Shown here one piece after another: positions 8,528-25,665 of a DNA stretch of 36,149 nucleotides. The notes under the pieces were generated by a model. The model was not told where the DNA came from and made no database searches. It worked only from the letters and a program-made list of their open reading frames with translations. Source of the stretch: a virus; the IMG/VR virus record IMGVR_UViG_3300035698_006320, positions 1 through 36,149 of that record. The stretch is one strand, 5' to 3'. The position numbers were made by a program, and so were the translations under genes. Positions within the stretch are counted from its first letter, which is position 1. Each line of letters opens with the position of its first letter.

Positions 8528-8785
8528 TTAAAATTCTCTTCCGCACTTAGGGCAAAACTGTATTTCCTTATAAACAGTATTATCTGCTAGTGGTTCAAAC
8601 ATCAATTCATGTATATATCTTTTATAATCATAATGTAAAACTAATAGATTATCTATTATATGCAATGATGGGTTTCCATATTTGTTAAAGTTGCAATATT
8701 CGCATTTTTCAGCTTCTAGTGATTCTTTTTGCTCTCTGGCTTTTTCTTCTTCAATCCATTCATCAAGCTGTTCTTCTATATTCAT
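8528..8785 (-). CDS. Small zinc-ribbon protein
   Basis: An 85-residue protein with AGGAGG upstream of the ATG. Two CxxC pairs (Cys28/Cys31 and Cys78/Cys81, the second as CPKCG) form a probable zinc ribbon, preceded by an acidic helical N-terminus. It is second from the end of the leftward operon. The pattern is common to small phage zinc-binding proteins, including the Lar type that modulates restriction enzymes, but similarity is only in the zinc motif. Function is unknown. Confidence 0.6.
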   Translation of the reverse strand: MNIEEQLDEWIEEEKAREQKESLEAEKCEYCNFNKYGNPSLHIIDNLLVLHYDYKRYIHELMFEPLADNTVYKEIQFCPKCGREF

Positions 8786-8821
8786 TTTCCCTCCTAAAAT
8801 TTACGGGTAATAATAGCCAAC

Positions 8822-9019
8822 TTAGCTAATATTGGCTGATATAATATTAGAAACTTTTATGTGATACCATTTAGCTACTCTTTTATTATACCACTCTAAA
8901 TATTTTTTCTTTGCTTCAGAAAGTGTTTTTGCTGTGACTAATCTATACTCATCATACTGATTAAAATCCTCACGCTTATGGCTATGCATTTTTACCACAC
9001 ATAATAAAAATTGTTCCAT
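8822..9019 (-). CDS. Small protein of unknown function (65 aa)
   Basis: A 65-residue protein with GGAGGATAGGAA before its ATG. It begins as a beta strand (FLLCVVKMHSH) and has an S-E-A-K-K-K-Y-L-E-W-Y helix near 34-44. This beta-then-helix pattern resembles small phage proteins with an AxxKxxxEW helix. A leader element shared with the next upstream gene precedes it. No function assigned. Confidence 0.5.
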   Translation of the reverse strand: MEQFLLCVVKMHSHKREDFNQYDEYRLVTAKTLSEAKKKYLEWYNKRVAKWYHIKVSNIISANIS

Positions 9020-9087
9020 TTCCTATCCTCCTTAATTTCTCCTATTTTAGTTATTCCGCATAACACCGCCCTTCCATTATGTACACC

Positions 9088-9327
9088 TTAGTCTTGCATA
9101 GGTTTAGGCATTTCACACCAACTTATTATCGATATTACTTCATCAGGTCTTTCATTTACAACCCAAGCACCTTTTTTGACATTAAATTCTTTTACCGTTA
9201 CAACATAAAAAGATTTACTCATAAAAGTAACATAGATAGTTACTATATATTCGTCTGTAAACTTGGGATCGTCACAATTATCTCTATAGCTGTGCCAAAA
9301 TTTTTCAGTTATTATTTCCTTTTTCAT
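9088..9327 (-). CDS. Small protein of unknown function (79 aa)
   Basis: The ATG at 9327 has AAGGAGAA eight bases upstream, so it is preferred over a longer frame reaching 9441 that overlaps the NinB-like gene and would be translated through a hairpin leader. The protein alternates beta strands (EYIVTIYVTF, SFYVVTVKEF) and contains a WCEM near the C-terminus. It belongs to the leftward operon. No family is recognised. Confidence 0.5.
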   Translation of the reverse strand: MKKEIITEKFWHSYRDNCDDPKFTDEYIVTIYVTFMSKSFYVVTVKEFNVKKGAWVVNERPDEVISIISWCEMPKPMQD

Positions 9328-9412
9328 CTTACTTCTCCTTTTATTTTCGGTGACACAGAACACCGCCATCCACCACTCACAAGTTCGCAAGTGGCGTAGC
9401 CAATCCATTATG
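9328..9412 (-). promoter_or_regulatory. Hairpin-bearing leader between two leftward genes
   Basis: On the minus strand this 85-nt spacer contains a 7-bp stem CGCCACT/AGTGGTG (one G-U, 12-nt loop) and a 5-bp stem CGGTG/CACCG just before the ribosome-binding site. Its ATAATGGA and GGCGGTGTT elements recur, closer together, in the 68-nt spacer 9020-9087 ahead of the next gene. It may be a processing or translational control site; it has no T-run and is not a good terminator. Confidence 0.35.
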
Positions 9413-9958
9413 CTAACAACAACTACCTGCGAACTCATCACAGTTTATTAGCGTTTTCTTATTCATCTTTGCAATATTGCGCTCACGTTTCATTCTTTCT
9501 TTGACTTGTTTTTCAGTCTCAATGGTAATCCCTAAAAATTCACCATAAAATCTAATACACCAAGAAATAATAAAAGAAAATCGCTCTTTTGATATGTCGT
9601 TATTCCCAAAACCTTTAGGAACCAGAAAAACCTCACCAACATCATTTGTAAAAGGTTCAACGTGCATAATATCTGGATGTGTTTTAATCCTAAGCTTAAC
9701 CCAATCTTTGGCTCTAGCCTTATCTAATGGTAGATCATGCCCAGCGTCTCTATACCCAGCTATTATCTTGCCAAGACAAGCGTCACTATGGAAAAATCTA
9801 TTCTGAGAGTAAGTTTTTGGTTCACTTATCTTTTTAATCACAGCAGTAAACAACACCCCATCAAGGCTTTCTTTCTTTACTTCTTTTCTCAACCCATTAG
9901 TAGCCTGTAACCAATTAGCTACAGGCTTATCATTTTTGAATCTTATTGCTATTTTCAT
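9413..9958 (-). CDS. NinB/Orf-like recombination protein
   Basis: A 181-residue protein whose ATG overlaps the ERF stop by four bases (ATGA). Near residues 48-58 it has KTYSQNRFFHSD, matching the xxxQNRxFH signature of lambda NinB (Orf)-type recombination mediators. Phage NinB binds single-stranded DNA and SSB and helps strand loading. The C-terminal tail (from about 150) is basic and then Cys-rich (CDEFAGSCC), which is unusual. Direct coupling to an ERF annealing protein supports a recombination role. Family match rests on one motif plus context. Confidence 0.5.
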   Translation of the reverse strand: MKIAIRFKNDKPVANWLQATNGLRKEVKKESLDGVLFTAVIKKISEPKTYSQNRFFHSDACLGKIIAGYRDAGHDLPLDKARAKDWVKLRIKTHPDIMHVEPFTNDVGEVFLVPKGFGNNDISKERFSFIISWCIRFYGEFLGITIETEKQVKERMKRERNIAKMNKKTLINCDEFAGSCC

Positions 9959-10524
9959 TTCCCAAGCTCTTTTGTTTTATACTTATTTCTCAGAGATTTT
10001 AGCAATAATTCCAGATCGCTTACGGTTCTTTTATTATCCAAGAAGTTCTTCTCCATTGTATAGATTTCTGTCTCATCCATACCCATAGCTTTATAGCCAC
10101 TTTGGATTTCATCTTCTAGCTTTTTCTTTTTCCCTTTACCAGCTGGAGTTTCAGTTTTACCGCTTGCCATATTACCATCATCATCTAGCGCCTGAAGGCT
10201 GAAAAGAGACTGTAGACTGTATCTTCTGTAGTAAGTGATAGAAGAACCCATCTTTTGAGGATCGTTCAAATTGGGCAGAGTTACGGTTGACTCAATCATC
10301 TCATCTGTCTCTGTATCTACTAACATGGTTTTTATCGCAGGAATTCCATTCACGTTTGACAATGGCTGTAGTAATAGAAGATTTTCTTCTTGAAGTGTAG
10401 GCTTGAGAGTTTCAAGCATTTGGTTGATGTCAAAATATTTTGACTTGAAATAAGGATTTTCAGCACCTTTCACAATCCCGATAATCTTTTTCTGTACGTT
10501 TGCTAACTTTTTATAAATTCCCAT
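9955..10524 (-). CDS. erf: ERF-family single-strand annealing protein
   Basis: A 189-residue protein with CTGGGAGG before the ATG. It shows the ERF signatures: NPYFKSKYFDINQMLETLKP near 23-42, and DPQKMGSSITYYRRYSLQSLFSL near 88-110 followed by ALDDDGN. The ERF domain (about 1-120) anneals complementary single strands during phage recombination and genome circularisation. A Lys-rich linker follows (about 127-135, KGKKKK) and then a helical C-terminus. No partner exonuclease is seen next to it. It heads the recombination pair with the NinB-like protein. Family identity is strong. Confidence 0.9.
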   Translation of the reverse strand: MGIYKKLANVQKKIIGIVKGAENPYFKSKYFDINQMLETLKPTLQEENLLLLQPLSNVNGIPAIKTMLVDTETDEMIESTVTLPNLNDPQKMGSSITYYRRYSLQSLFSLQALDDDGNMASGKTETPAGKGKKKKLEDEIQSGYKAMGMDETEIYTMEKNFLDNKRTVSDLELLLKSLRNKYKTKELGK

Positions 10525-10740
10525 CTAAACCTCCCAGTCTATCTTGTTAAGTTCTTCCACTACAGCCTGCTTACAAGCCTCATAATCATCAAAATATGCT
10601 CTCCCGTCAATATCCACAGGCTCGATAGAAATGTCAAAGCCGAACACATTCGGATTATGCTCAATTTCAACGTTCCCCACTACTCGGAAAGTCCCTAAAG
10701 CAGTTTCAACTTCTTGATTTATTTCTACTGTATCATCCAT
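10525..10740 (-). CDS. Small acidic protein of unknown function (71 aa)
   Basis: A 71-residue acidic protein with GGAGGG five bases before the ATG. It starts with a beta-rich part (ETALGTFRVVGNVEIEHNP) and ends in a helix (EACKQAVVEELNKIDWEV). It abuts the ERF gene without a gap. No family is recognised; its tight packing suggests it is translated with the ERF gene. Confidence 0.55.
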   Translation of the reverse strand: MDDTVEINQEVETALGTFRVVGNVEIEHNPNVFGFDISIEPVDIDGRAYFDDYEACKQAVVEELNKIDWEV

Positions 10741-10953
10741 TTAACCCTCCAAGTTATATATTTCAAAGTCGCCCATTAGCTCTTTCAGATATTCTTCTTC
10801 ATAAGTAAATTCTCCGTTAAACTCAGTTTCTATCACATAATATGTTTCAGTTTCAGACATGAAATTTACTGAGATAACTTCTCCCTTGTGAGCTTTACCG
10901 TTTAGTAAATAATTAACATCATCGCCAGGATCAAGGATTGGTTCGTATTTCAT
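10741..10953 (-). CDS. Small acidic protein of unknown function (70 aa)
   Basis: A 70-residue acidic protein. The segment DPGDDVNYLLNGKAHKGEVISVNF (about 8-31) has the look of a small SH3-like or KOW-like beta barrel common in phage early proteins, with a helical acidic C-terminus. Its start overlaps the preceding gene's stop by one base. The fold suggestion is by pattern only. Confidence 0.5.
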   Translation of the reverse strand: MKYEPILDPGDDVNYLLNGKAHKGEVISVNFMSETETYYVIETEFNGEFTYEEEYLKELMGDFEIYNLEG

Positions 10954-11192
10954 TATTCACCCCCAAAGGCAAAGCTACCGATTATACCATCCATGATAGA
11001 CTTCTCAGGCTCTTCAATACCATAATCAGCTAGGAAAGTATCTCTCATTTTTTCATGGATATACTCTTCATCGTGGAATATTTGAGCTTTTGATTTATCT
11101 TCTGTATATTTGCAATCTGCTACGGGAATCATCAAAGTTTTAACATACAATCTTTCCGCATTTCGATCAATAAATACTACAAACTTTTTCAT
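10953..11192 (-). CDS. Small protein of unknown function (79 aa)
   Basis: The second of two adjacent ATGs, at 11192, lies five bases from GGAGG and is preferred over 11195 (two bases) or the remote 11225. The product is mixed alpha/beta (KKFVVFIDRNAERLYVK start) and ends with a Gly-rich GIIGSFAFGGE tail. The CTGGGAGG ribosome-binding element is shared with several leftward genes. No function assigned. Confidence 0.5.
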   Translation of the reverse strand: MKKFVVFIDRNAERLYVKTLMIPVADCKYTEDKSKAQIFHDEEYIHEKMRDTFLADYGIEEPEKSIMDGIIGSFAFGGE

Positions 11193-11208
11193 CATTACCT
11201 CCCAGTAA

Positions 11209-11544
11209 TTAACAACAATGCGCATCTCTCAAACTCTTTTGTTGTTCTAGCTCGTCAAGGCACAACCGCACGATCGCATCCTCAACACGTTCATCTTTTG
11301 AAGAGTTCTTCCCATTCACGATCATGCTTATCATCGTGGTAGAAACACCATCTCCGCCATTATCCATTAATTCTTTTAGCACATCTAAGTGCCTAACTCC
11401 TGCATGGATCATAGCTGATTTAATTTCTTTTACTGTATAATCTGATAGTTTCATTTGAATAGCCTCCGAGTGCTCTCTACATTCCGAACAAATCTGATCT
11501 ACTTCACCCAACAGGGGTGCTCCACAACATTCTGATAGCTTCAT
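11209..11544 (-). CDS. Zinc-ribbon/helix-turn-helix protein, putative regulator
   Basis: A 111-residue protein with AAAGGAG before the ATG. Residues 6-22 have Cys6, Cys7, Cys19 and Cys22 as a compact zinc knuckle (C-C-G-A-P then CSEC). Residues about 38-95 form a helix-turn-helix-like part, with STTMISMIVNGKNSSKDERVEDAI matching the VS-x-VINGxxxS pattern of XRE-type DNA-binding domains. The C-terminus again has Cys-Cys. A DNA-binding early regulator is likely, perhaps acting on the divergent control regions. The regulator role is inference; the zinc and HTH patterns are visible. Confidence 0.55.
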   Translation of the reverse strand: MKLSECCGAPLLGEVDQICSECREHSEAIQMKLSDYTVKEIKSAMIHAGVRHLDVLKELMDNGGDGVSTTMISMIVNGKNSSKDERVEDAIVRLCLDELEQQKSLRDAHCC

Positions 11545-11738
11545 TTCATAACTCCTTTAATTAACATCAAAAACACCATTACAAATGTGATAACTATTGC
11601 AGACATCACACCACCTGCCACACACATCAGAGCGTAGCCAGAAAATATCCCTGTCACACTCATTATTACCATTCCCGCCACGACAAACATCACCGCAACG
11701 ATAAATATACCGATTAGAATATCTATTGCCTTATCCAT
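11541..11738 (-). CDS. Small two-helix membrane protein
   Basis: A 65-residue protein, almost all hydrophobic, with two transmembrane segments (about 5-29 and 34-60) separated by a short Gly/Tyr turn. It has AAGGAG before the ATG and overlaps its downstream neighbour by four bases. Expressed with early genes rather than the lysis cluster, it could affect superinfection or the host membrane; no function is shown. Confidence 0.55.
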   Translation of the reverse strand: MDKAIDILIGIFIVAVMFVVAGMVIMSVTGIFSGYALMCVAGGVMSAIVITFVMVFLMLIKGVMK

Positions 11739-11968
11739 TATGCTTCTCCTTTTAATTCATAAACAAACATTTCGTCTTCAGTCATACATCTATATTTAAA
11801 TTCACTCTCTGGGAAATCCTTTGCAAATTGGTTGAATTTTTCGATACAATTATCTTCTCCATCAATACGATCTTCCCAAACCAAGCCGTCTTTCAATATA
11901 GTATATTCATATCTGCCACAAAAATTGCAACTATTACATATCTTACCAGTTATATAACATACCCGCAT
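11738..11968 (-). CDS. Small cysteine-rich protein
   Basis: A 76-residue protein. ATG 11968 has GGAGG five bases upstream; the longer TTG start at 11980 would overlap that site. The N-terminus has Cys3, Cys10, Cys13 and Cys16 (C-x6-C-x2-C-x2-C), a probable metal-binding knot, followed by a mixed acidic part. Unknown function in the leftward early operon. Confidence 0.55.
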   Translation of the reverse strand: MRVCYITGKICNSCNFCGRYEYTILKDGLVWEDRIDGEDNCIEKFNQFAKDFPESEFKYRCMTEDEMFVYELKGEA

Positions 11969-11970
11969 TC

Positions 11971-12147
11971 CTACCTCCAAATCTCTGTTAAGCTACCCAA
12001 AAATAAACTAGCACCGAGTAAATATTTTATCTCTCCAGTGCCGAAAAATATCTCCCCTGTCCATGCCAGATCAAGTACGATCAAGCAGATAGAAAAGAAC
12101 GCCAAAAACACAAGCGAATATAGTAAAATGTTAGTAAATCGTTTCAT
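11971..12147 (-). CDS. Small membrane protein (58 aa)
   Basis: A 58-residue protein starting at ATG 12147, preceded by CTGGGAGG. The longer frame up to 12243 would run through a terminator hairpin and is rejected. Two hydrophobic segments (about 7-29 and 40-53) indicate a small integral membrane protein. It is the first gene after the terminator at 12163-12199, so its expression may depend on readthrough. No function assigned. Confidence 0.55.
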   Translation of the reverse strand: MKRFTNILLYSLVFLAFFSICLIVLDLAWTGEIFFGTGEIKYLLGASLFLGSLTEIWR

Positions 12148-12306
12148 AATTCCTCCCAGAATAAAAAAGGGCTGGTGATGCAGACAACACAGCCAACCCT
12201 CAGTTGTTTTGATACTTGTGACAAGTTTTAATTCCCCAGTCACCTTCGGAATAACCCTGCTAGATTTCTAGCTCACGTCTATAACTTTTAATGATCTAAT
12301 TTCTGA
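12148..12306 (-). ncRNA. Structured leader or small RNA ending in a terminator
   Basis: On the minus strand this spacer contains a GCTAG/CTAGC hairpin (AAAT loop), an ATTCC/GGAAT pairing, an ACTTG/CAAGT hairpin (TCA loop), ACAAC/GTTGT, and a final GGGTTGG/CCAGCCC stem with six T. It lies between the first leftward gene and the rest of the operon. A stand-alone small RNA or an attenuator leader would both fit. No match to a known riboswitch was recognised. Confidence 0.4.
12163..12199 (-). terminator. Intrinsic terminator/attenuator inside the leftward operon
   Basis: Minus strand: 7-bp stem GGGTTGG/CCAGCCC with one G-T pair (12199-12193 with 12175-12169), a 17-nt loop, then six T (complement of 12163-12168). 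The position after the first leftward gene and just before the CTGGGAGG of the next gene suggests partial termination or antitermination control. Confidence 0.65.
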
Positions 12307-12603
12307 TTAATAGTCCAGATTTAAATACATCAATTTGTTAAAATTAGTGCCGTTGATTTTACAAATCTCCTTGCATTTGTCCAAAAAGATTGTAGCTTCT
12401 CCATTATTTACATGTATTACTGGCTTGATGATGTTTCCCTCTATGAGGGTGTGTACCCAATTGCAACCATTCGGGGTAATGATTTCCCCTAAGGAGTTAA
12501 TTTGACAATCCATCTCGGTCTCTTTGTCACCTATTCTGTTTACGATTGTTAGGTTGTAAAATTCGTTTCCTAATTCTTTTTTAAAATATAAATGATTTTT
12601 CAT
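12307..12603 (-). CDS. First leftward early gene, unknown (98 aa)
   Basis: The ATG at 12603 is preceded by CTGGGAGG with seven bases of spacing; the longer frame to 12651 lacks a signal. The protein is mixed alpha/beta with LTIVNRIGDKETEMDCQINSLGEIITPNGCNW near 34-65. It is the first gene from the leftward promoter near 12685 and is separated from the rest of the operon by a terminator, so it may be made in larger amounts. No family is recognised. Confidence 0.55.
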   Translation of the reverse strand: MKNHLYFKKELGNEFYNLTIVNRIGDKETEMDCQINSLGEIITPNGCNWVHTLIEGNIIKPVIHVNNGEATIFLDKCKEICKINGTNFNKLMYLNLDY

Positions 12604-12685
12604 AATATCCTCCCAGATACTTTTAATTTCTTCCTTTCCACTCCTAAACACAACTACAATTTAATTGACCCCGTTCCGATGTCAA
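12604..12685 (-). promoter_or_regulatory. Leftward early promoter and leader (copy 1)
   Basis: Minus strand TTGACA at 12685-12680, a 16-base spacer and TAAATT, then a leader with GGAGTGGAAAGGA and GTATCTGGGAGGATATT directly before the ATG at 12603. The last ~23 bases are identical to the leader at 21845, and the TTGACA-to-ATG distance is almost the same (82 versus 81). It appears to be a duplicated promoter-leader. Confidence 0.55.
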
Positions 12686-13218: not shown

Positions 13219-14076
13219 ATGGGTAAAAATAGATATATAAACACGTCTTTCTGGGATGATGAATACATTATGGATTTATCTGCTAAAGATAAGCTACTTT
13301 TCTTATATCTTTTGACTAGCCCCTTAAATAATATATCTGGGATGTATGAAATCCATTTAAGAAGGATCATATTTGACACAGGGTTGCAGAAGCAAGAAAT
13401 ATTAAAGGCTTTGAAAGGCTTTGAAAGGAACAAGAAGGTTTTCTTTGTAGATGATAAGTTTATAGTTATAGCAAATTTCATAAAACATCAAAAGCTAAAT
13501 GTCAATATTCAAAAAGGAATTGTAAATTGTGTCAATTCTTTGCCTGTTTTTGTTAAGTCTTTTCTTGGTATAGAGTTAATAAAGCCTTTCAAAAGCTTGC
13601 TTGAAATAAAGAAGGCTTTGAACTATATTAATATTAATTCTAATCTTAATCTAAATACTAATATTAATCTTAAAGTGGATATTGATAAAGAATTATCAAA
13701 ACCACAAGAGGAAGATTTATATCGTAAGTTTGCACATTTAGAATTAACCCAAGATGAGTATTCTAAACTAATAAAGTATGGCATGAGTAAACAAGCTATT
13801 GATGATTTATGCGATAAGGTAGAAAATTATAGCAAGAACAAAAACTATAAATCTTTATATCTTACAATACTTAGTTGGTACAAGAAACAAGAATTAACCG
13901 ATAAACCAGAGAAAAAATGTAAGCGGAAAGATGATATAGATGTATGTATAGAATATGCTAAAACAAGAGATTGGGAAGGGCTAAGTAAAGCTTTGCCTAA
14001 AAAATTCAGGAATGGGGTGAGTGAGTCAGATAAGGTCTTTTATGGTGAAATAGCAGATAAGAGGTATAGTTCATGA
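13219..14076 (+). CDS. Replisome organizer / helicase-loader-type replication initiator
   Basis: A 285-residue protein. The N-terminal ~95 residues match phage replisome organizers with a winged-helix fold (RYINTSFWDDEYIMDLS, KLLFLYLLTSPLNNISGMYEI, then VIANFIKHQ). A low-complexity Asn/Leu/Ile linker (about 134-150) follows. The C-terminal region has LTQDEYSKLIKYG and a YKSLYLTILSWYKKQ helix of the kind seen in DnaD/DnaB-like helicase loaders. It would bind the origin and recruit the primase-helicase encoded next, with which it overlaps by ATGA. AT-rich repeats within the linker-coding DNA may be the origin itself. Confidence 0.75.
   Translation: MGKNRYINTSFWDDEYIMDLSAKDKLLFLYLLTSPLNNISGMYEIHLRRIIFDTGLQKQEILKALKGFERNKKVFFVDDKFIVIANFIKHQKLNVNIQKGIVNCVNSLPVFVKSFLGIELIKPFKSLLEIKKALNYININSNLNLNTNINLKVDIDKELSKPQEEDLYRKFAHLELTQDEYSKLIKYGMSKQAIDDLCDKVENYSKNKNYKSLYLTILSWYKKQELTDKPEKKCKRKDDIDVCIEYAKTRDWEGLSKALPKKFRNGVSESDKVFYGEIADKRYSS
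13620..13675 (+). other. Candidate replication origin: AT-rich iteron-like repeats
   Basis: Within the initiator gene, about 55 bases are nearly all A/T with repeated CTTAATC, CTAATA and TTAATATTAAT units, encoding N-x-N-x linker residues. Phage origins commonly lie inside the initiator gene (lambda O is the classic case). Origin function is inference. Confidence 0.4.
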
Positions 14077-15791
14077 GAGAGATAATAAAAGCACTAGGGC
14101 AACACAGAGTCAAGGGTAATGAGATAACCTTCCGTAAGTGTCCATTTTGCGGGAGTAGTGGCAAGGGTGATGATTACACCTTCTCAATTAATCGAGAAGA
14201 GGGAGTTTATAACTGCTTTCGTGGATCTTGTGGGGCAAGCGGGAATTTGAAACAGTTAGCTGAAAAGCTTAATATCCGCATGGCAGATGATTATTCTAAT
14301 ATCCACGTAAGCGAGAAAAACTATTCAAAACCTAAGCAGAAGATACTAACCCCTCAAGAGCAGGTCTATAAGTATTTCACTGGCAGGATGATAAGCAAAA
14401 AGACTGTTGATTTTGCTGAAGTTGGAATGACAGACAAGGGATGGATAAGCTACAACTACAAGGATGAAAAGGGTGAGTTGACCTTTCGCAAATTTAGAAG
14501 CGTTAAGCAGAAAAAGATTATGCGGGAGAAAGATACCAAGCCAATATTCTACATGATGGACAAGATAAATTCTTTTGAGTCCGTGATAATCACAGAGGGC
14601 GAAGAGGACTGTCTATCTATTTGGGAAGCAGGATATACTAATGCGGTGAGCCTACCTTCTGGATGTAGCGATATGACAGCAATAACTAATTGTTGGGAGT
14701 GGATTAATAGTTTCAATGAAATCATAATCTGGACAGACTCAGATAAGGCAGGAGTGAAAGCTAGGGAAGAAATATCACACAGGTTAGGTGAATACAAGTG
14801 CAAATATATAGAATCTGAGAAGTTCCCCGATGCTAACGATGCTCTAAAATTTGGTGGAGTTGAGAAGCTAAAAGAGATTATCGAAAGTGCTGAATACATT
14901 GCTATAAACGAAGTAATTAAACTATCTGGCATTGACATATACAAAAATGAAGATCACCAAGAACACGTAGATAGTGGGTTCAACCATATTAACAAAATGA
15001 CACATGGCGGGTATCGTAGAGGTGATGTAATACTTTGGACAGGGTACACTTCAAGCGGGAAATCTACAATCTTATCTCAGGAGTTGACCCACTTTATCGA
15101 GCAGAAAGAAAAGATTTGCGTCTATTCGAGTGAAAGTGCTAATAAGAAAATAGCAACTACCTTGTACTCTCAATGTTGCGAAGAAGCTAAAATGAAGCGT
15201 AATTTTAATAAAAAATATGGCTATGAATATCACACAGTAACAGAGGCTAATTGTGATTTAATCCGATCTTGGGTGGGGGATAAGTTCTTTGTTATGAAAG
15301 ATGGATATTCAGGGAAGTACACAGACCTATTCAAATTATTCCTTTCAATACACCTCAGGTATAATGTTAAGACGTTTGTAATAGATAACCTCGCCACTAT
15401 ACTACCTTACAGCCAAAGTAGCTTAAACGACACACAAACAGCCTTTATCGAGGAAGCCCAATTATTCGCTGTAGAAAATAATGTTACTGTGCATATTGTA
15501 GCACATCAGAAAAATCTCACAGAGGGGAAGAAGCCAAGACCTTCGCTGTATGGTGTTATGGGTTCAAGTAATTTATCAAATTTGGCAGATGTTGTAATTG
15601 GGATTGAGAGGCTAACTGAGGAGGATGAATACGATGGGAATATAATAATATTAAAGGAGCGTGAAACTGGTAATATCGATAACGTAGAGGCTTTATATTT
15701 TACTTCAGCCAACAAAACTTTCAGGGAAACTACAAACATAAATATAAATAAATTAAGCTGGGATAAGACAGACAGCTTCCAAGGATGGTAA
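14073..15791 (+). CDS. Bifunctional DNA primase-helicase (T7 gp4/Twinkle type)
   Basis: A 572-residue protein. Residues 23-53 form a zinc-binding domain (Cys23, Cys26, Cys48, Cys53). A TOPRIM primase core follows with TEGEED near 174-179 (Glu175) and WTDSDKAG near 220-227. The C-terminal helicase has Walker A GYTSSGKST (324-332), Walker B FVIDNL (435-440) and AHQK (477-480). It would prime and unwind DNA at the phage fork as a hexamer. Length and domain order match phage gp4-like enzymes. Translationally coupled to the replisome organizer by ATGA. Confidence 0.92.
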   Translation: MREIIKALGQHRVKGNEITFRKCPFCGSSGKGDDYTFSINREEGVYNCFRGSCGASGNLKQLAEKLNIRMADDYSNIHVSEKNYSKPKQKILTPQEQVYKYFTGRMISKKTVDFAEVGMTDKGWISYNYKDEKGELTFRKFRSVKQKKIMREKDTKPIFYMMDKINSFESVIITEGEEDCLSIWEAGYTNAVSLPSGCSDMTAITNCWEWINSFNEIIIWTDSDKAGVKAREEISHRLGEYKCKYIESEKFPDANDALKFGGVEKLKEIIESAEYIAINEVIKLSGIDIYKNEDHQEHVDSGFNHINKMTHGGYRRGDVILWTGYTSSGKSTILSQELTHFIEQKEKICVYSSESANKKIATTLYSQCCEEAKMKRNFNKKYGYEYHTVTEANCDLIRSWVGDKFFVMKDGYSGKYTDLFKLFLSIHLRYNVKTFVIDNLATILPYSQSSLNDTQTAFIEEAQLFAVENNVTVHIVAHQKNLTEGKKPRPSLYGVMGSSNLSNLADVVIGIERLTEEDEYDGNIIILKERETGNIDNVEALYFTSANKTFRETTNININKLSWDKTDSFQGW

Positions 15792-15893: not shown

Positions 15894-17123
15894 ATGGGAA
15901 GAAAGCAAATATCGTTTGAAGAGTTGCAAAAAGTCTGGGATTTTTCTGAAGAGTTTGGGATTAATGCTGCAACAGAATATTTTGACCTAACAAAGGATGA
16001 CATAACCTACCGCAGGAAAAGGTACAAAAGAGTTATGAGTTCAGATGGTGAGATCATAATTGAGAATGTGCGTCTAGCTAAATCCAGACAGAAACAAATG
16101 GATATGAATCGGATAGAGCGTAAATCTTTTAGGGAATACTCCAGAGAAACAAACGCTATCGAATCACTTAATAAAGAGCTAATAAATGTATTTTCAAACC
16201 ATAACCTTTCGCAATTTGTCAAGTATCACGAGCCAAAAACCTGCGCTGGAGTAGGAATAATCCAATTATCCGATCTTCACCTAAACGAGTTAGTAAACCT
16301 AGTATGTAATGTGTATGATTTCAAAGTAGCTTCTAAGAGGCTCCAAAAGTTTGCAGATAAGTCTCGGCAAGGATTCAAAGCTAGAGGGATTAAAAACATA
16401 GTAATTGCTGATTTAGGTGACAAATTAAATAGTGATCGTAGATTAGATGAAGCAATGTCAAACGCTACTAATCGCAGTCAAGCTCAATTCATTGCAGTAG
16501 AGCTATTATCACAATTCATCTTAGATCTTAATCAGGATTTTAACATCACATATACCTATGTAGTGGGTAATGAATCCAGAGCTAAAGACGAGCTTACTTG
16601 GTCTCATCCCACAGCTACAGATAATTATGACTATTCTATTGTCCAAATGCTAAAGCTGGTTTTCAAAGGATCAAAAGGGTTGGTTTTCATCGAACCTGAA
16701 ACACCTAACAAGACAGTCATAAGCATCAATGGGAAGAATTTCTTATTGGTCCATGGCATCAAATTTGGCAAAGACCCGCATAATTCAGTGACTAAATTGA
16801 TAAGACAATATGCAGATAAAGGTATATTGATATACTTCGTATTGTTTGGTCACTTACACGAAACACTTATTACAGACACTTTCGCTCGTAGTGCAAGTAT
16901 GGTAGGCGCTAACGCTTACAGCGAGGAAAGCTTAATGCTGACCAGTAGAGCAGCCCAAAACAACCACATAGTAGACGAACAAGGCATCACGTCAACCAAG
17001 ATAGACCTGCAGAATACAGCTGGCTATAATGGCTATAATATCACAAAAGAGTTGGAAGAATACAACGCAAAAAGTGCTGACAAGAATAGAGTACGAAAGA
17101 CTATTTTCGAGGTTAGAGTCTAA
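15894..17123 (+). CDS. Calcineurin-like metallophosphoesterase
   Basis: A 409-residue protein with GGGAGG before the ATG. The N-terminal ~110 residues are charged and helical, perhaps DNA-binding (a wHTH-like YFDLTKDDITYRRKRYKR). The phosphoesterase motifs follow: SDLHL at 126-130 (Asp127, His129), ADLGDKLNS with Asp176/Asn179, GNES at 225-228, LVHG at 285-288 (His287), and FGHLHE at 318-323 (His320, His322). The second motif is GDKLN where GDxxD/N is usual. Such phage enzymes are often SbcD-like nucleases or phosphatases. Its place between primase and methyltransferase favours a DNA-processing role. Confidence 0.8.
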   Translation: MGRKQISFEELQKVWDFSEEFGINAATEYFDLTKDDITYRRKRYKRVMSSDGEIIIENVRLAKSRQKQMDMNRIERKSFREYSRETNAIESLNKELINVFSNHNLSQFVKYHEPKTCAGVGIIQLSDLHLNELVNLVCNVYDFKVASKRLQKFADKSRQGFKARGIKNIVIADLGDKLNSDRRLDEAMSNATNRSQAQFIAVELLSQFILDLNQDFNITYTYVVGNESRAKDELTWSHPTATDNYDYSIVQMLKLVFKGSKGLVFIEPETPNKTVISINGKNFLLVHGIKFGKDPHNSVTKLIRQYADKGILIYFVLFGHLHETLITDTFARSASMVGANAYSEESLMLTSRAAQNNHIVDEQGITSTKIDLQNTAGYNGYNITKELEEYNAKSADKNRVRKTIFEVRV

Positions 17124-17137
17124 TGTATGGAGGTACT

Positions 17138-17857
17138 ATGAAACCCGATTACCAGATAAAAGATGTAAAGCTATATAACTGTGATAATATGGTTTTTATG
17201 AAAGAAATCCCTGATAATTTCTACGACTTGGCAATTATTGATCCGCCTTATGGGATAGGTGAATGTGGGAAAAGTAATAATAGTAGAGGTTCGTCTGCAG
17301 GAGCCAATAAATGGAAAGGATCAAGGAACACTACTGGCGTTGGGATACCAAGTACACAATTTTCAGAAAAACAATGGGATAAAAAGCCACCTAAAAAAGA
17401 ATATTTTGAGGAATTAGTAAGAATATCAAAAAATCAAATAGTGTGGGGGGCAAACCATTTTATTGATCTTATACCAAAAAGGTCAAGTTGCTGGATTGTA
17501 TGGGATAAAGTTAATGGTACAACCGATTTTGCTGATGCAGAATTAGCATATACATCACTCAAAACAGCGGTTAGAATATTTAAGTTTATGTGGAATGGTA
17601 TGTTACAGGGTAATATGTCAGAAAAAGAAAAGCGAATCCACCCAACACAAAAACCAGTCCAATTATACAAGTGGCTGCTAGAAAACTACGCAAAAGAAGG
17701 TCAAAAGATAATCGACACTCACGGTGGTTCAATGTCAATCGGCTGTGCTTGTATGGATATGAATTTTGACATAGATATAATGGAAATTGACAAAGAGTAT
17801 TTCGACAATGCAATTCAGCGGCTAGAGAATAATAACCAAAGGTATTTTGAGTTTTAA
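17138..17857 (+). CDS. DNA adenine-type methyltransferase (first of two)
   Basis: A 239-residue protein. ATG 17138 has GGAGG four bases upstream; the ATG at 17123 overlaps the previous stop but precedes that site. DPPY at 35-38 (catalytic motif IV), HPTQKP at 168-173, and an AdoMet-binding motif written IIDTHGGSMS at 191-200. Motif IV preceding motif I, plus the DTHGGS variant, is typical of phage orphan methylases. It has no restriction partner nearby. Likely protects phage DNA from host restriction or marks it; N6-adenine specificity is inferred. Confidence 0.82.
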   Translation: MKPDYQIKDVKLYNCDNMVFMKEIPDNFYDLAIIDPPYGIGECGKSNNSRGSSAGANKWKGSRNTTGVGIPSTQFSEKQWDKKPPKKEYFEELVRISKNQIVWGANHFIDLIPKRSSCWIVWDKVNGTTDFADAELAYTSLKTAVRIFKFMWNGMLQGNMSEKEKRIHPTQKPVQLYKWLLENYAKEGQKIIDTHGGSMSIGCACMDMNFDIDIMEIDKEYFDNAIQRLENNNQRYFEF

Positions 17858-17867
17858 AAGGAATTGT

Positions 17868-17981
17868 ATGAGCTACAAACACGCTAAAGCGGTAAGAAAT
17901 ATGCACAAACCAGTGCATAAAGCAAAGATATGCACTAAATACTGCATAAACGGTAATCATCCCGACATTGTGTCGCGATAA
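17868..17981 (+). CDS. Small basic His/Cys peptide (37 aa)
   Basis: A 37-residue ORF with AAAGGA eight bases upstream, just after the methyltransferase. It is rich in Lys and His and has Cys22 and Cys26 (KICTKYCINGNH), suggesting a small metal- or nucleic-acid-binding peptide. Coding status rests on the ribosome-binding site and gene packing. Confidence 0.4.
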   Translation: MSYKHAKAVRNMHKPVHKAKICTKYCINGNHPDIVSR

Positions 17982-18017
17982 GAGTCCAGTTAATTAACGA
18001 AAAAAGGAGAAAGTAAA

Positions 18018-18239
18018 ATGGGAAAGAAAAATATCAGAACATACCGTATAATTCAAATCCAAAGAAATGGTATAGATATAATGGCTATTGCTTATCCAAA
18101 AGATGAAATTATCCCTATTGTTGGAGATAATTTAACTATTTTAGACCATCATAAAAAAGAATATATGGGTAAGGTAATATCAAGAACTATCACTATCAGG
18201 AAATATAGAGAAATAAGGTTGGTGGTAAATTGCACATAA
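18018..18239 (+). CDS. Small basic protein of unknown function (73 aa)
   Basis: A 73-residue basic beta-rich protein with AAAGGAG before the ATG. It alternates strands (TYRIIQIQRNGIDIMAIAY, KVISRTITIRKYREIRLVV) like a small barrel. The last codons and stop lie in the left arm of a large hairpin starting at 18233, which could affect mRNA stability or termination. No family is recognised. Confidence 0.55.
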   Translation: MGKKNIRTYRIIQIQRNGIDIMAIAYPKDEIIPIVGDNLTILDHHKKEYMGKVISRTITIRKYREIRLVVNCT

Positions 18240-18289
18240 CACAAATATGCCACGCAAAGCTAAGCGGAGCGTGGATATAGTGTTATGTG
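18233..18289 (+). other. Large 57-nt hairpin at the gene end
   Basis: CACATAACAC (18233-18242) pairs fully with GTGTTATGTG (18280-18289); inside, ATAT/ATAT and CCACGC/GCGTGG extend it to about 20 bp with small internal bulges and a 13-nt loop. No T-run follows on either strand, so it is not a standard terminator. Confidence 0.7.
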
Positions 18290-18542
18290 TAATCTATGAA
18301 AAGTATGCACAGTTTGTGGATGTTATTTATCACGAAAAAGAAAAGCCCATTAATTCATCAAAATGAATAATAGGCTAGGCTGGATGTGAGCTTTGGGGCA
18401 AATCAGCTAGTATGTTCATTAAAATGAAAATAGCGCAAGGGGGAGGTAACCTTGCGCTGGCAGCAATCCAACACTCGTGAGAATGTGGTTGCCTAAATAC
18501 AAAATACAATATCTCAGAAATGGATAATCAGGTCAAGTAATA

Positions 18543-18570
18543 AAAAAGCAGTACCTAAATTCTCGGTACT
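18543..18570 (-). terminator. Leftward terminator-like hairpin without a leftward gene
   Basis: Minus strand: AGTACC/GGTACT stem (18570-18565 with 18555-18550, nine-base loop), then GC and six T (complement of 18542-18547). No minus-strand gene ends here. It may end an antisense RNA or simply be part of the structured region. Confidence 0.4.
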
Positions 18571-18622
18571 TAAAATCTCGCACTAGAAAGTATGCTAAAA
18601 CTGTACTTCTTGGAGATTTAAG

Positions 18623-18676
18623 TTGACAGGATTCTTGGGAAATTAGAGAGTTGTTTATAAATATAGGGAGGAAAAG
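18623..18676 (+). promoter_or_regulatory. Rightward control element TTGACAGGA (copy 2)
   Basis: TTGACAGGA at 18623-18631, 54 bases before the ATG at 18677, with TTTATAAATATAGGGAGG just before translation start. No well-spaced -10 box. It shares the nonamer and distance with 12754 and 22000. Confidence 0.45.
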
Positions 18677-20771: not shown

Positions 20772-20800
20772 GCACACAATCACGATAAATGATTGTGTGC
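20772..20800. terminator. Perfect 11-bp hairpin between convergent genes
   Basis: GCACACAATCA (20772-20782) pairs perfectly with TGATTGTGTGC (20790-20800), loop of seven. On the plus strand it is followed by TGTTTCT and later TTTTTT, a modest terminator for the SSB transcript. It overlaps the stop of the leftward gene. Confidence 0.6.
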
Positions 20801-21046
20801 TGTTTCTATGCGTTTTTTCAGCTCTTTCGTATATTCTGCTTTCCAATTCTGCCCTTTTGATAGCTTCCGCTTTTGCTTGAATTTATCTAGCGGATAGTTT
20901 TTTGCTTCTGCTGCAAACAGGAATACAGAATAGCAATGTTCAGGCTTTACTTTGGACTTCCCGAATATCTGCCGCCCGAAAAGCACCAGGCTCGATAGGT
21001 TATTACTATCAAGCAGGCTTTTAAGCTTTTTGATTTCTGATTTCAT
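20780..21046 (-). CDS. Small basic protein of unknown function (88 aa)
   Basis: An 88-residue Lys-rich protein with CTGGGAGG before the ATG. It is helical at both ends (KKLKSLLDSNNLSSLVLFGRQIF, EYTKELKKRIETAHNHL). It ends the short leftward operon convergent with SSB. Basicity and size would suit a nucleic-acid-binding protein, but no family is recognised. Confidence 0.55.
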   Translation of the reverse strand: MKSEIKKLKSLLDSNNLSSLVLFGRQIFGKSKVKPEHCYSVFLFAAEAKNYPLDKFKQKRKLSKGQNWKAEYTKELKKRIETAHNHLS

Positions 21047-21094
21047 TTTATCCTCCCAGTTTGTAATTCGTGTATCATAGGTTAATCCATCTTA

Positions 21095-21574
21095 TTAAAA
21101 GTTTAAAAAATCATTAGTGTCTAGGTCATTCTGTGAATACAATTTAGAACAAAAATCAAAATAATAATTAGAATAAAAATCAATCTGGTCATCATTATAC
21201 TCTGCCATTTTTTCAGCAATTTTGTTATCTTCTTCCCACCCATTAGCACAAGCATCTAAGAAATCATAAGTTCCCTGATCGCAAATAATTTTTTCTATAT
21301 CTTCTACTGAAAATTCCATCATCCGAAATTCATCATATCCGTAATAATTGCCAGAATCAGCATCACAAGAGTCATACATCCCAGATCTATTTTTGGCAGC
21401 AAATACTACAACAATATCTCTCCCTGGGAAAAGTCTCTCAGAATCTTCAGTGGAACAACAAATCCCTCTGTCGCTCATACTCTCATTAACAATATCTTCT
21501 AACCAAGTTAGATTTGTTTTATGGAAAAGTTTTCCATTATAATCTTTCATAGCCATATTTTTTGAAAATCCCAT
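21095..21574 (-). CDS. Acidic protein of unknown function (159 aa)
   Basis: Of two adjacent ATGs, 21574 has AGGAGG at better spacing than 21577. The protein is very acidic with many Asp, Tyr and Cys (SGMYDSCDADSGNYYGYDEF, then EWEEDNKIAEKMAEYNDDQIDFY-like segment near 115-135). Strong negative charge and aromatic clusters recall DNA-mimic inhibitors, but that is only a suggestion. Second gene of the short leftward operon. Confidence 0.5.
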   Translation of the reverse strand: MGFSKNMAMKDYNGKLFHKTNLTWLEDIVNESMSDRGICCSTEDSERLFPGRDIVVVFAAKNRSGMYDSCDADSGNYYGYDEFRMMEFSVEDIEKIICDQGTYDFLDACANGWEEDNKIAEKMAEYNDDQIDFYSNYYFDFCSKLYSQNDLDTNDFLNF

Positions 21575-21583
21575 CATATCCTC

Positions 21584-21844
21584 CTATACTCTACTTTCTG
21601 AATTGAATTTTGCACAAGAAGTAAAAAAACCATCTCTTTTTTCTTTCAATATTTCAATGGCATCTTCTTCTGTGAAGCTAACTTTTGCTAATTGGTCTGT
21701 ATGAAATTCTACAGATCTTCTAGAGTATTCACTTGAACTTCTACTTCCCCGCTTGATCTTCTTTTCACATCTGCTAGTTAGCGTAATAAGTTCTTCTCTT
21801 AATTGTTCCCTGTAGCTGACTTGTCTTTCTGTAAGTTCGTTCAT
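21584..21844 (-). CDS. First gene of the short leftward operon (86 aa)
   Basis: The ATG at 21844 is preceded by CTGGGAGG in a leader nearly identical to that of the gene at 12603; the longer frame to 21925 is rejected. An 86-residue, strongly charged, helical protein with a Ser/Arg cluster (RGSRSSSEYSRRS, 32-44). Sharing a promoter-leader with 12307-12603 but not its sequence indicates that the regulatory unit, not the gene, was duplicated. No family is recognised. Confidence 0.5.
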   Translation of the reverse strand: MNELTERQVSYREQLREELITLTSRCEKKIKRGSRSSSEYSRRSVEFHTDQLAKVSFTEEDAIEILKEKRDGFFTSCAKFNSESRV

Positions 21845-21925
21845 AATATCCTCCCAGATACTTTGTTTATTCCTTTTCCACTTCCAAACACATATATAAC
21901 TTAAGGCATTGGGATAATATGTCAA
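21845..21925 (-). promoter_or_regulatory. Leftward early promoter and leader (copy 2)
   Basis: Minus strand TTGACA at 21925-21920 with TAAGTT 16 bases on, then GTGTTTGGAAGTGGAAAAGGA and the leader ending GTATCTGGGAGGATATT before the ATG. It aligns along its length with 12604-12685, with about 23 identical bases at the ATG end. Confidence 0.55.
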
Positions 21926-25064: not shown

Positions 25065-25540
25065 ACAAAAACGCAGATTATGAAATCCTTGTCACGGGTG
25101 ACATACTAGGCAAACGATTCGGAAAGCCCTTGTATCAAAACCAGTCAGGTAGATTTATCAACTATGGCGGGATAACTACATCTGCCATCTTGCTCGTTTA
25201 TGGAAAGTTTATAGGTGAGATAAAAATTGGTGAAAAGGTTTGGTTAATAGATAATAAAGGGAAGCCAGCAGTTGAGAACCTAATCAAGCTGAAGAAAAAA
25301 AGTATCTGGCTGAGTTTCTTCAAGCACGCTAAAGATGATATTGCAAAGCTTAACAACCATAAGCAAACGATTGAAGAGCTTAGGTATGATATTTACGATT
25401 CAGGTAGCAAGGTACAAACTTGCAACTCTTACAACATAACCGAGAACCTAGTCGATCTTATTATAACCTCATTAAGGCTGTCTTTCAAGCTAGGCATCAA
25501 CACAATCCTAGAAGCTTTGAAACTTAGATTAAATGAGTAA
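25061..25540 (+). CDS. Protein of unknown function (159 aa)
   Basis: The ATG at 25061 overlaps the previous stop and has AAGGA nine bases upstream; an ATG at 25052 is also possible. The N-terminal half is beta-rich and basic (KPLYQNQSGRFINYGGITT), the C-terminal half helical (TENLVDLIITSLRLSFKLGINTILEAL). It closes the packaging cluster before a promoter. No family is recognised. Confidence 0.55.
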   Translation: MNKNADYEILVTGDILGKRFGKPLYQNQSGRFINYGGITTSAILLVYGKFIGEIKIGEKVWLIDNKGKPAVENLIKLKKKSIWLSFFKHAKDDIAKLNNHKQTIEELRYDIYDSGSKVQTCNSYNITENLVDLIITSLRLSFKLGINTILEALKLRLNE

Positions 25541-25549
25541 TTAATTGTA

Positions 25550-25579
25550 TTGACGGTGTTTTCTGGGGTGAATAATAAT
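25550..25579 (+). promoter_or_regulatory. Promoter upstream of the portal gene
   Basis: TTGACG (25550-25555) and AATAAT (25574-25579, 18-base spacer) or TAATAA (17-base spacer) give a sigma70-like promoter in the only sizeable gap of the late region. It would drive the head and tail genes. Confidence 0.5.
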
Positions 25580-25586
25580 CGGGTTG

Positions 25587-25644
25587 TTTCATAGAAACCT
25601 CCTGATGTAGGCTATTGCTTTTTGACGGGGCGATAGCCTATTTT
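25587..25644 (+). promoter_or_regulatory. Leader with two hairpins before the portal gene
   Basis: A small GTTTC/GAAAC hairpin is followed by a 10-bp stem AGGCTATTGC/GCGATAGCCT (25609-25618 with 25630-25639, one G-T pair), then ATTTTAATTT. The T-run is weak; the element may be an attenuator or mRNA-stability hairpin. Confidence 0.5.
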
Positions 25645-25665
25645 AATTTAATACAAGGAAAACAC

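What the first reader, a model, noticed from the sequence alone, without database searches (positions are those of the whole stretch)
18233..18676. Chain of hairpins in the largest gene-free region: candidate new structured RNA
The 437-bp stretch after the gene at 18018 has no supported ORF but at least seven hairpins, two of them perfect and long (18233-18242 with 18280-18289; AGCGCAAGG/CCTTGCGCT at 18432-18458 with a GGGAGG loop), a repeated TTCAT-nAAA-ATGAA element (18354-18367 and 18415-18428), and a possible closing 7-bp pairing between 18309 and 18604. Large ornate phage RNAs (GOLLD, ROOL) are known in comparable settings, but I cannot match this to them. In a gene-dense phage such a gap must be doing something.
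Basis: partly seen in the sequence, partly recalled or inferred. Interest (0 to 1): 0.75.

Follow-up and report, generated by a model that had tools for sequence, protein, structure and literature searches.

The report
Likely small RNA gene, opposite strand
A gene-free gap in an unclassified phage most likely holds a small regulatory RNA gene on the strand opposite to its neighbours, with a loop that could block ribosome-binding sites, rather than a giant ornate RNA; no relative was found, so it remains an untested candidate.

Summary
The gap 18240-18676 and its hairpins are real, but the evidence points to the other strand and to a small RNA, not one large ornate RNA. The well-defined part is 18335-18500 read on the MINUS strand: five hairpins, fold z -4.6 (0 of 200 shuffles as good) against -2.3 on plus, with three G-U pairs that would be A-C mismatches on plus. 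Two of these hairpins are followed by T-runs on minus only and are among the four strongest terminator-like sites in the window; 0 of 60 shuffles had such a same-strand pair. A weak promoter-like site (18536-18508, minus) would start an RNA about 8 bases before the first hairpin. The nine-base open loop UUACCUCCC is complementary to Shine-Dalgarno sequences, best those of leftward phage genes. My reading: a minus-strand sRNA of about 80 nt (read-through about 165 nt) that blocks translation. The 'closing' pairing is no better than chance. A separate hairpin, 18231-18293, at the end of gene 18018-18239, is the most stable in the window. There was no match in Rfam and no homologue in phages, plasmids, IMG/VR pattern scans or the fetched loci, so covariation could not be tested.

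The parts
18335..18501 (-). candidate small RNA gene, read-through form of about 165 nt ending at terminator T3
   Evidence: minus-strand fold z -4.56, 0 of 200 shuffles as good; plus strand z -2.31; centroid close to MFE only on minus
18422..18501 (-). candidate main form of the RNA, about 80 nt, ending at terminator T2
   Evidence: two hairpins, -27.6 kcal/mol, z -4.48, 0 of 200 shuffles; plus strand z -2.64
18508..18536 (-). promoter-like site TTGACC-17-GATATT with TG before the second hexamer
   Evidence: consensus match only; such sites are about as common as chance in the region
18462..18493 (-). hairpin 1 of the RNA, 13 bp with two G-U pairs on minus that are A-C mismatches on plus
18423..18458 (-). 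hairpin 2 / terminator T2: AGCGCAAGG-UUACCUCCC-CCUUGCGCU then AUUUUCAUUU; open anti-Shine-Dalgarno loop
   Evidence: terminator score -14.6, third strongest in the window; loop unpaired probability 0.98-1.0
18441..18449 (-). loop UUACCUCCC, proposed seed that pairs with Shine-Dalgarno sequences
   Evidence: duplex energies stronger for leftward gene starts, p 6.5e-5; beyond a generic anti-SD p 0.03
18415..18428 (-). small hairpin 3, UUCAU-UUUA-AUGAA; one of the two TTCATnAAAATGAA copies
18335..18375 (-). terminator T3: 14-bp stem with one bulge and one G-U pair on minus, then UUUUCUUUUU; contains the other TTCATnAAAATGAA copy
   Evidence: score -13.6, fourth strongest in the window
18538..18571 (-). 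weaker terminator-like hairpin T1: AGTACC-GAGAATTTA-GGTACT-GC-TTTTTT
   Evidence: score -7.9, within chance on its own
18231..18293 (+). hairpin A over the stop codon of ORF 18018-18239, no T-run after it; likely 3'-end structure of the rightward message
   Evidence: -31.4 kcal/mol, z -7.4, most stable 75-base stretch in the window; one G-U pair favours plus
18623..18631 (+). TTGACAGGA, shared with the regions ahead of 12810 and 22060; likely promoter element for gene 18677
   Evidence: TTGACAGG occurs 4 times, three just ahead of rightward gene blocks; no good -10 box found

Best explanation
The gap holds a small RNA gene transcribed leftward (minus strand), opposite to the genes on either side. 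RNA polymerase starts near 18501, copies a strong 5' hairpin, then hairpin 2, whose stem also acts as an intrinsic terminator, giving an RNA of about 80 nt; read-through to the second terminator gives about 165 nt. The loop of hairpin 2, UUACCUCCC, is held open and pairs with GGGAGG(U)-type Shine-Dalgarno sequences of phage messages, best those of the leftward genes, many of which carry CUGGGAGG, blocking ribosome entry and turning those genes down. Shown: the strand preference of the structure, the pair of terminator-like sites, the open loop (by prediction) and its complementarity. Inferred: that the promoter works, that the RNA is made, that the targets are the phage's own leftward genes rather than host messages, and that pairing represses.
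For: The minus strand folds far better than shuffles, the plus strand much less so. Three local G-U pairs on minus, none on plus in the same hairpins. Two of the four strongest terminator-like sites of the window lie here, same strand, about 90 bases apart; 0 of 60 shuffles had such a pair. Both T-runs lie on minus only. A promoter-like site is placed about 8 bases ahead of hairpin 1. The loop is predicted fully unpaired. Loop-to-gene-start duplex energies: median -10.5 for leftward against -6.05 for rightward starts, p 6.5e-5; exact 9-base complement just ahead of the start codon at 11192.
Against: No homologue, so no covariation and no sign of conservation. The promoter-like site is no better than many chance sites. 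The plus strand is A-rich, so T-runs are commoner on minus. Most of the target preference follows from the leftward genes having stronger Shine-Dalgarno sequences: a generic 16S tail shows it too (p 3e-4), and UUACCUCCC ranks only 25th of 256 CCUCC-containing loops. The strand reading was formed on these same data, after the folds were seen. Host and its promoter type are unknown.
Confidence: 0.45

Rival explanations
1. Tandem leftward terminators without an RNA gene: they stop read-through of the leftward genes 21925-20780 before it runs antisense into the replication genes further left.
For: Two strong and one weak minus-strand terminator-like sites; no T-run after the hairpin at 20772-20800 on minus, so leftward read-through is plausible.
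Against: They would lie 2 kb beyond the last leftward gene, after antisense passage through four rightward genes; hairpin 1 and the open CCUCC loop would have no role.
Confidence: 0.2
2. Rightward 5' leader of gene 18677: a cis-acting regulator on the plus strand, perhaps with the SD-like GGGGGAGG presented in a hairpin loop.
For: The gap lies just ahead of gene 18677; the plus-strand fold of the whole gap has z -4.39; hairpin A slightly favours plus.
Against: Without hairpin A the plus strand loses most of its advantage (z -1.85 to -2.31); the likely promoter element TTGACAGGA at 18623 lies downstream of the hairpins, so they would not be in the leader.
Confidence: 0.13
3. DNA-level function: origin of replication or operator sites; the two TTCATnAAAATGAA dyads are protein-binding sites.
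For: The dyad pair is unexpected by chance; replication genes are near; a 15-bp repeat lies at 18551-18580; minus-strand DNA also folds better than shuffles (z -3.35).
Against: G-U pairs have no meaning for a DNA site; no iteron array; both dyads sit inside minus-strand hairpins, one of them in the terminator stem.
Confidence: 0.1
4. One large ornate RNA of 300 nt or more spanning the gap, on either strand.
For: Total structure is above chance; a 9-bp outer helix with one G-U can be drawn on minus.
Against: Long-range closure is no better than with shuffled flanks (40 and 62 of 200); internal terminators would cut a minus-strand RNA; no Rfam match.
Confidence: 0.06

Closest known systems
c4 antisense RNA of phages P1 and P7
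   Same: Small phage RNA whose loop bases pair around a ribosome-binding site and block translation (review PMC12197685).
   Different: c4 acts on ant; here the best-fitting targets lie about 7 kb away, there is no shown sequence relation, and action is not shown.
6C / B11 sRNAs of Actinobacteria (C-rich-loop sRNAs)
   Same: Short RNA of stable hairpins with an open C-rich loop that pairs with G-rich stretches in 5' untranslated regions (PMC10470900).
   Different: Chromosomal, two C-rich loops; the gap matches no Rfam family.
GOLLD and ROOL RNAs
   Same: Structured non-coding RNA in a phage.
   Different: Those form large cages (GOLLD often over 800 nt) and often lie near tRNA islands (PMC12286853); none of that holds here and their Rfam models do not match.

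Membership tests
GOLLD / ROOL ornate RNAs | match to the Rfam covariance model | tested here: not met
   no match at gathering threshold in the window, none up to E 10 in the gap
GOLLD / ROOL ornate RNAs | location near tRNA genes | tested here: not met
   no tRNA or tmRNA in the window
GOLLD / ROOL ornate RNAs | one large multi-branched fold with long-range closure | tested here: not met
   closure no better than with shuffled flanks
C-rich-loop sRNA (6C type) | match to the Rfam family | tested here: not met
   it may work like a 6C RNA but is not filed as one
C-rich-loop sRNA (6C type) | open C-rich loop complementary to ribosome-binding sites | tested here: met
   loop UUACCUCCC unpaired probability 0.98-1.0; predicted duplexes to -17 kcal/mol
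phage-encoded antisense sRNA in general (c4, sar, OOP) | own promoter and intrinsic terminator | tested here: inconclusive
   terminators strong; promoter only a consensus-like match
phage-encoded antisense sRNA in general (c4, sar, OOP) | transcript detected | not testable with these tools
   no RNA-seq available
conserved structured RNA | compensatory changes in homologues | not testable with these tools
   no homologue found in any collection searched

The most novel reading that the evidence does not exclude
A phage sRNA that mimics the 16S rRNA tail and, through one nine-base loop, shuts off a set of leftward phage genes that share the extended Shine-Dalgarno CUGGGAGG, making a switch between gene sets at the level of translation; a second candidate of the same design lies at 25585-25650.
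Probability: 0.12. Interest if true: 0.65.

Novelty: new member of a known kind. Interest (0 to 1): 0.4.

Why it matters
If confirmed, it would be an sRNA without known relatives in a phage without close relatives, with a simple and testable logic: one C-rich loop against the Shine-Dalgarno sequences of a coordinated gene set. It also shows a practical point: comparing both strands (G-U pairs, T-runs, centroid) turned an apparent large ornate RNA into a compact gene on the other strand.

Tried and rejected
Rfam at both thresholds: nothing credible. DNA similarity in phages and plasmids: nothing. Single-protein searches of IMG/VR with the exonuclease, primase and downstream gene: nothing. With an exonuclease alignment, 80 relatives, the nearest 57% identical (L005, L006), none with the gap's sequence. 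Genome contigs: five distant relatives. Exact-pattern scans for the C-rich hairpin, hairpin 1 and hairpin A: chance hits or none. A single-sequence covariance model found only itself, plus a weak hit at 25535-25647 that probably rests on a terminator, and one in L088, which had been fetched by a 19-base piece of the model and so is not independent. Coding: a 39-codon frame 18247-18366 has no ribosome site, an ambiguous codon score and no relative. An integron attC or mobile hairpin for hairpin A, suggested by ATAAC...GTTAT hairpins in L006: the window has one such copy in a gap; not pursued. Group I/II introns and IscB-type RNA: no Rfam hit and no matching protein next door.

Full report
Setting. 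The window is a 36-kb virus record with few near relatives. Around the gap lie a primase/helicase (14073-15791), a phosphoesterase/exonuclease (15894-17123), a DNA methyltransferase (17123-17857) and a 73-aa ORF of unknown function (18018-18239); after the gap come a 320-aa protein with a weak PHROG match, an HNH nuclease, a 100-aa ORF and a single-strand binding protein. Leftward gene blocks lie at 8528-12651 and 20780-21925. The gap 18240-18676 has no convincing gene.

Observation. All the repeats and hairpins named are in the sequence. As a plus-strand RNA the whole stretch has z -4.39, but much of this comes from the 5' hairpin 18231-18293 (z -7.4, the most stable 75-base stretch in the window). 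The 7-bp closure 18309/18604 is present but no better than chance: with only the flanks shuffled, 62 of 200 (plus) and 40 of 200 (minus) fold as well.

Strand. For 18335-18500 the minus strand gives z -4.56 with 0 of 200 shuffles as good and a centroid near the MFE (-44.2 against -46.7); the plus strand gives z -2.31 and a centroid of only -20.4. For 18300-18612 the values are -3.69 and -1.85. Hairpin 1 carries two G-U pairs and the terminator stem one on minus, each an A-C mismatch on plus. As single-stranded DNA the minus strand also folds better than shuffles (z -3.35), so structure alone does not exclude a DNA role; the G-U pairs argue for RNA.

Terminators. A scan that allows bulges put the sites at 18460-18421 (-14.6) and 18378-18333 (-13.6), both minus, third and fourth in the whole window, behind 25607-25650 plus and 12202-12157 minus. 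In 60 dinucleotide shuffles the mean number at or below -13.5 was 1.17 per window and none had a same-strand pair within 130 bases. A weaker one lies at 18571-18538.

Promoter. TTGACC-17-GATATT with a TG ahead of the second hexamer (18536-18508, minus) would start an RNA near 18501, about eight bases before hairpin 1. It is only a consensus match; the number of such sites in the region is near chance (18 against 14). TTGACAGG occurs ahead of three rightward blocks, including 18623 ahead of gene 18677, which suggests that gene 18677 has its own start downstream of the hairpins.

Loop and targets. Hairpin 2 holds the nine bases UUACCUCCC open (unpaired probability 0.98-1.0). Against 54 gene starts it pairs more strongly with leftward (median -10.5) than rightward starts (median -6.05; p 6.5e-5). 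A generic 16S tail shows the same trend (p 3e-4); the loop's excess over it is modest (p 0.03) and its rank is 25 of 256 CCUCC loops. The start at 11192 has an exact nine-base complement; that gene and several others share CUGGGAGG. The anti-Shine-Dalgarno role is plausible; the choice of targets is suggestive only.

Relatives. None were found for the gap (see tried and rejected), so conservation and covariation are untested. This is the main weakness.

Comparison. By design it would work like c4 RNA of P1/P7 (PMC12197685) and C-rich-loop RNAs such as 6C/B11 (PMC10470900); it is not a member of any Rfam family. GOLLD and ROOL (PMC12286853) are not supported by model, size or setting.

Verdict. 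A credible minus-strand small RNA gene, a new member of a known kind, with a testable mechanism; interest 0.4.

Noticed in passing
window 25550-25650, + strand: Second sRNA-like unit: TTGACG-17-TAATAA, then a CCUCC stretch partly unpaired between two hairpins, then the strongest terminator-like site of the window; pairs best with the start region of gene 24490.
   Followed up: partly
window 12603, 21844 and other leftward gene starts: Several leftward genes share the start region CTGGGAGG; the leaders of the two leftward blocks (12685-12600 and 21925-21840) look alike, AGTATCTGGGAGGATATTATGAA being identical.
   Followed up: partly
L006 4477-4509, 8426-8463, 8719-8754: Three similar short hairpins ATAAC(G/T)GC...GTTAT, two of them flanking a small ORF; they resemble a dispersed repeat or cassette boundary in the nearest relative of this phage.
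   Followed up: no
window 17858-18017: The 160-bp gap ahead of ORF 18018 also folds well on minus (z -3.3 in a 150-base scan with simple shuffles), with a 23-base direct repeat ATATGCAC...GCATAAA.
   Followed up: no
window 12754, 18623, 22000: TTGACAGG ahead of three rightward gene blocks without a clear -10 box; may be a phage-specific promoter or operator element.
   Followed up: partly
window 18018-18239 with 18231-18293: 73-aa ORF without relatives whose stop codon lies inside the strongest hairpin of the window.
   Followed up: no
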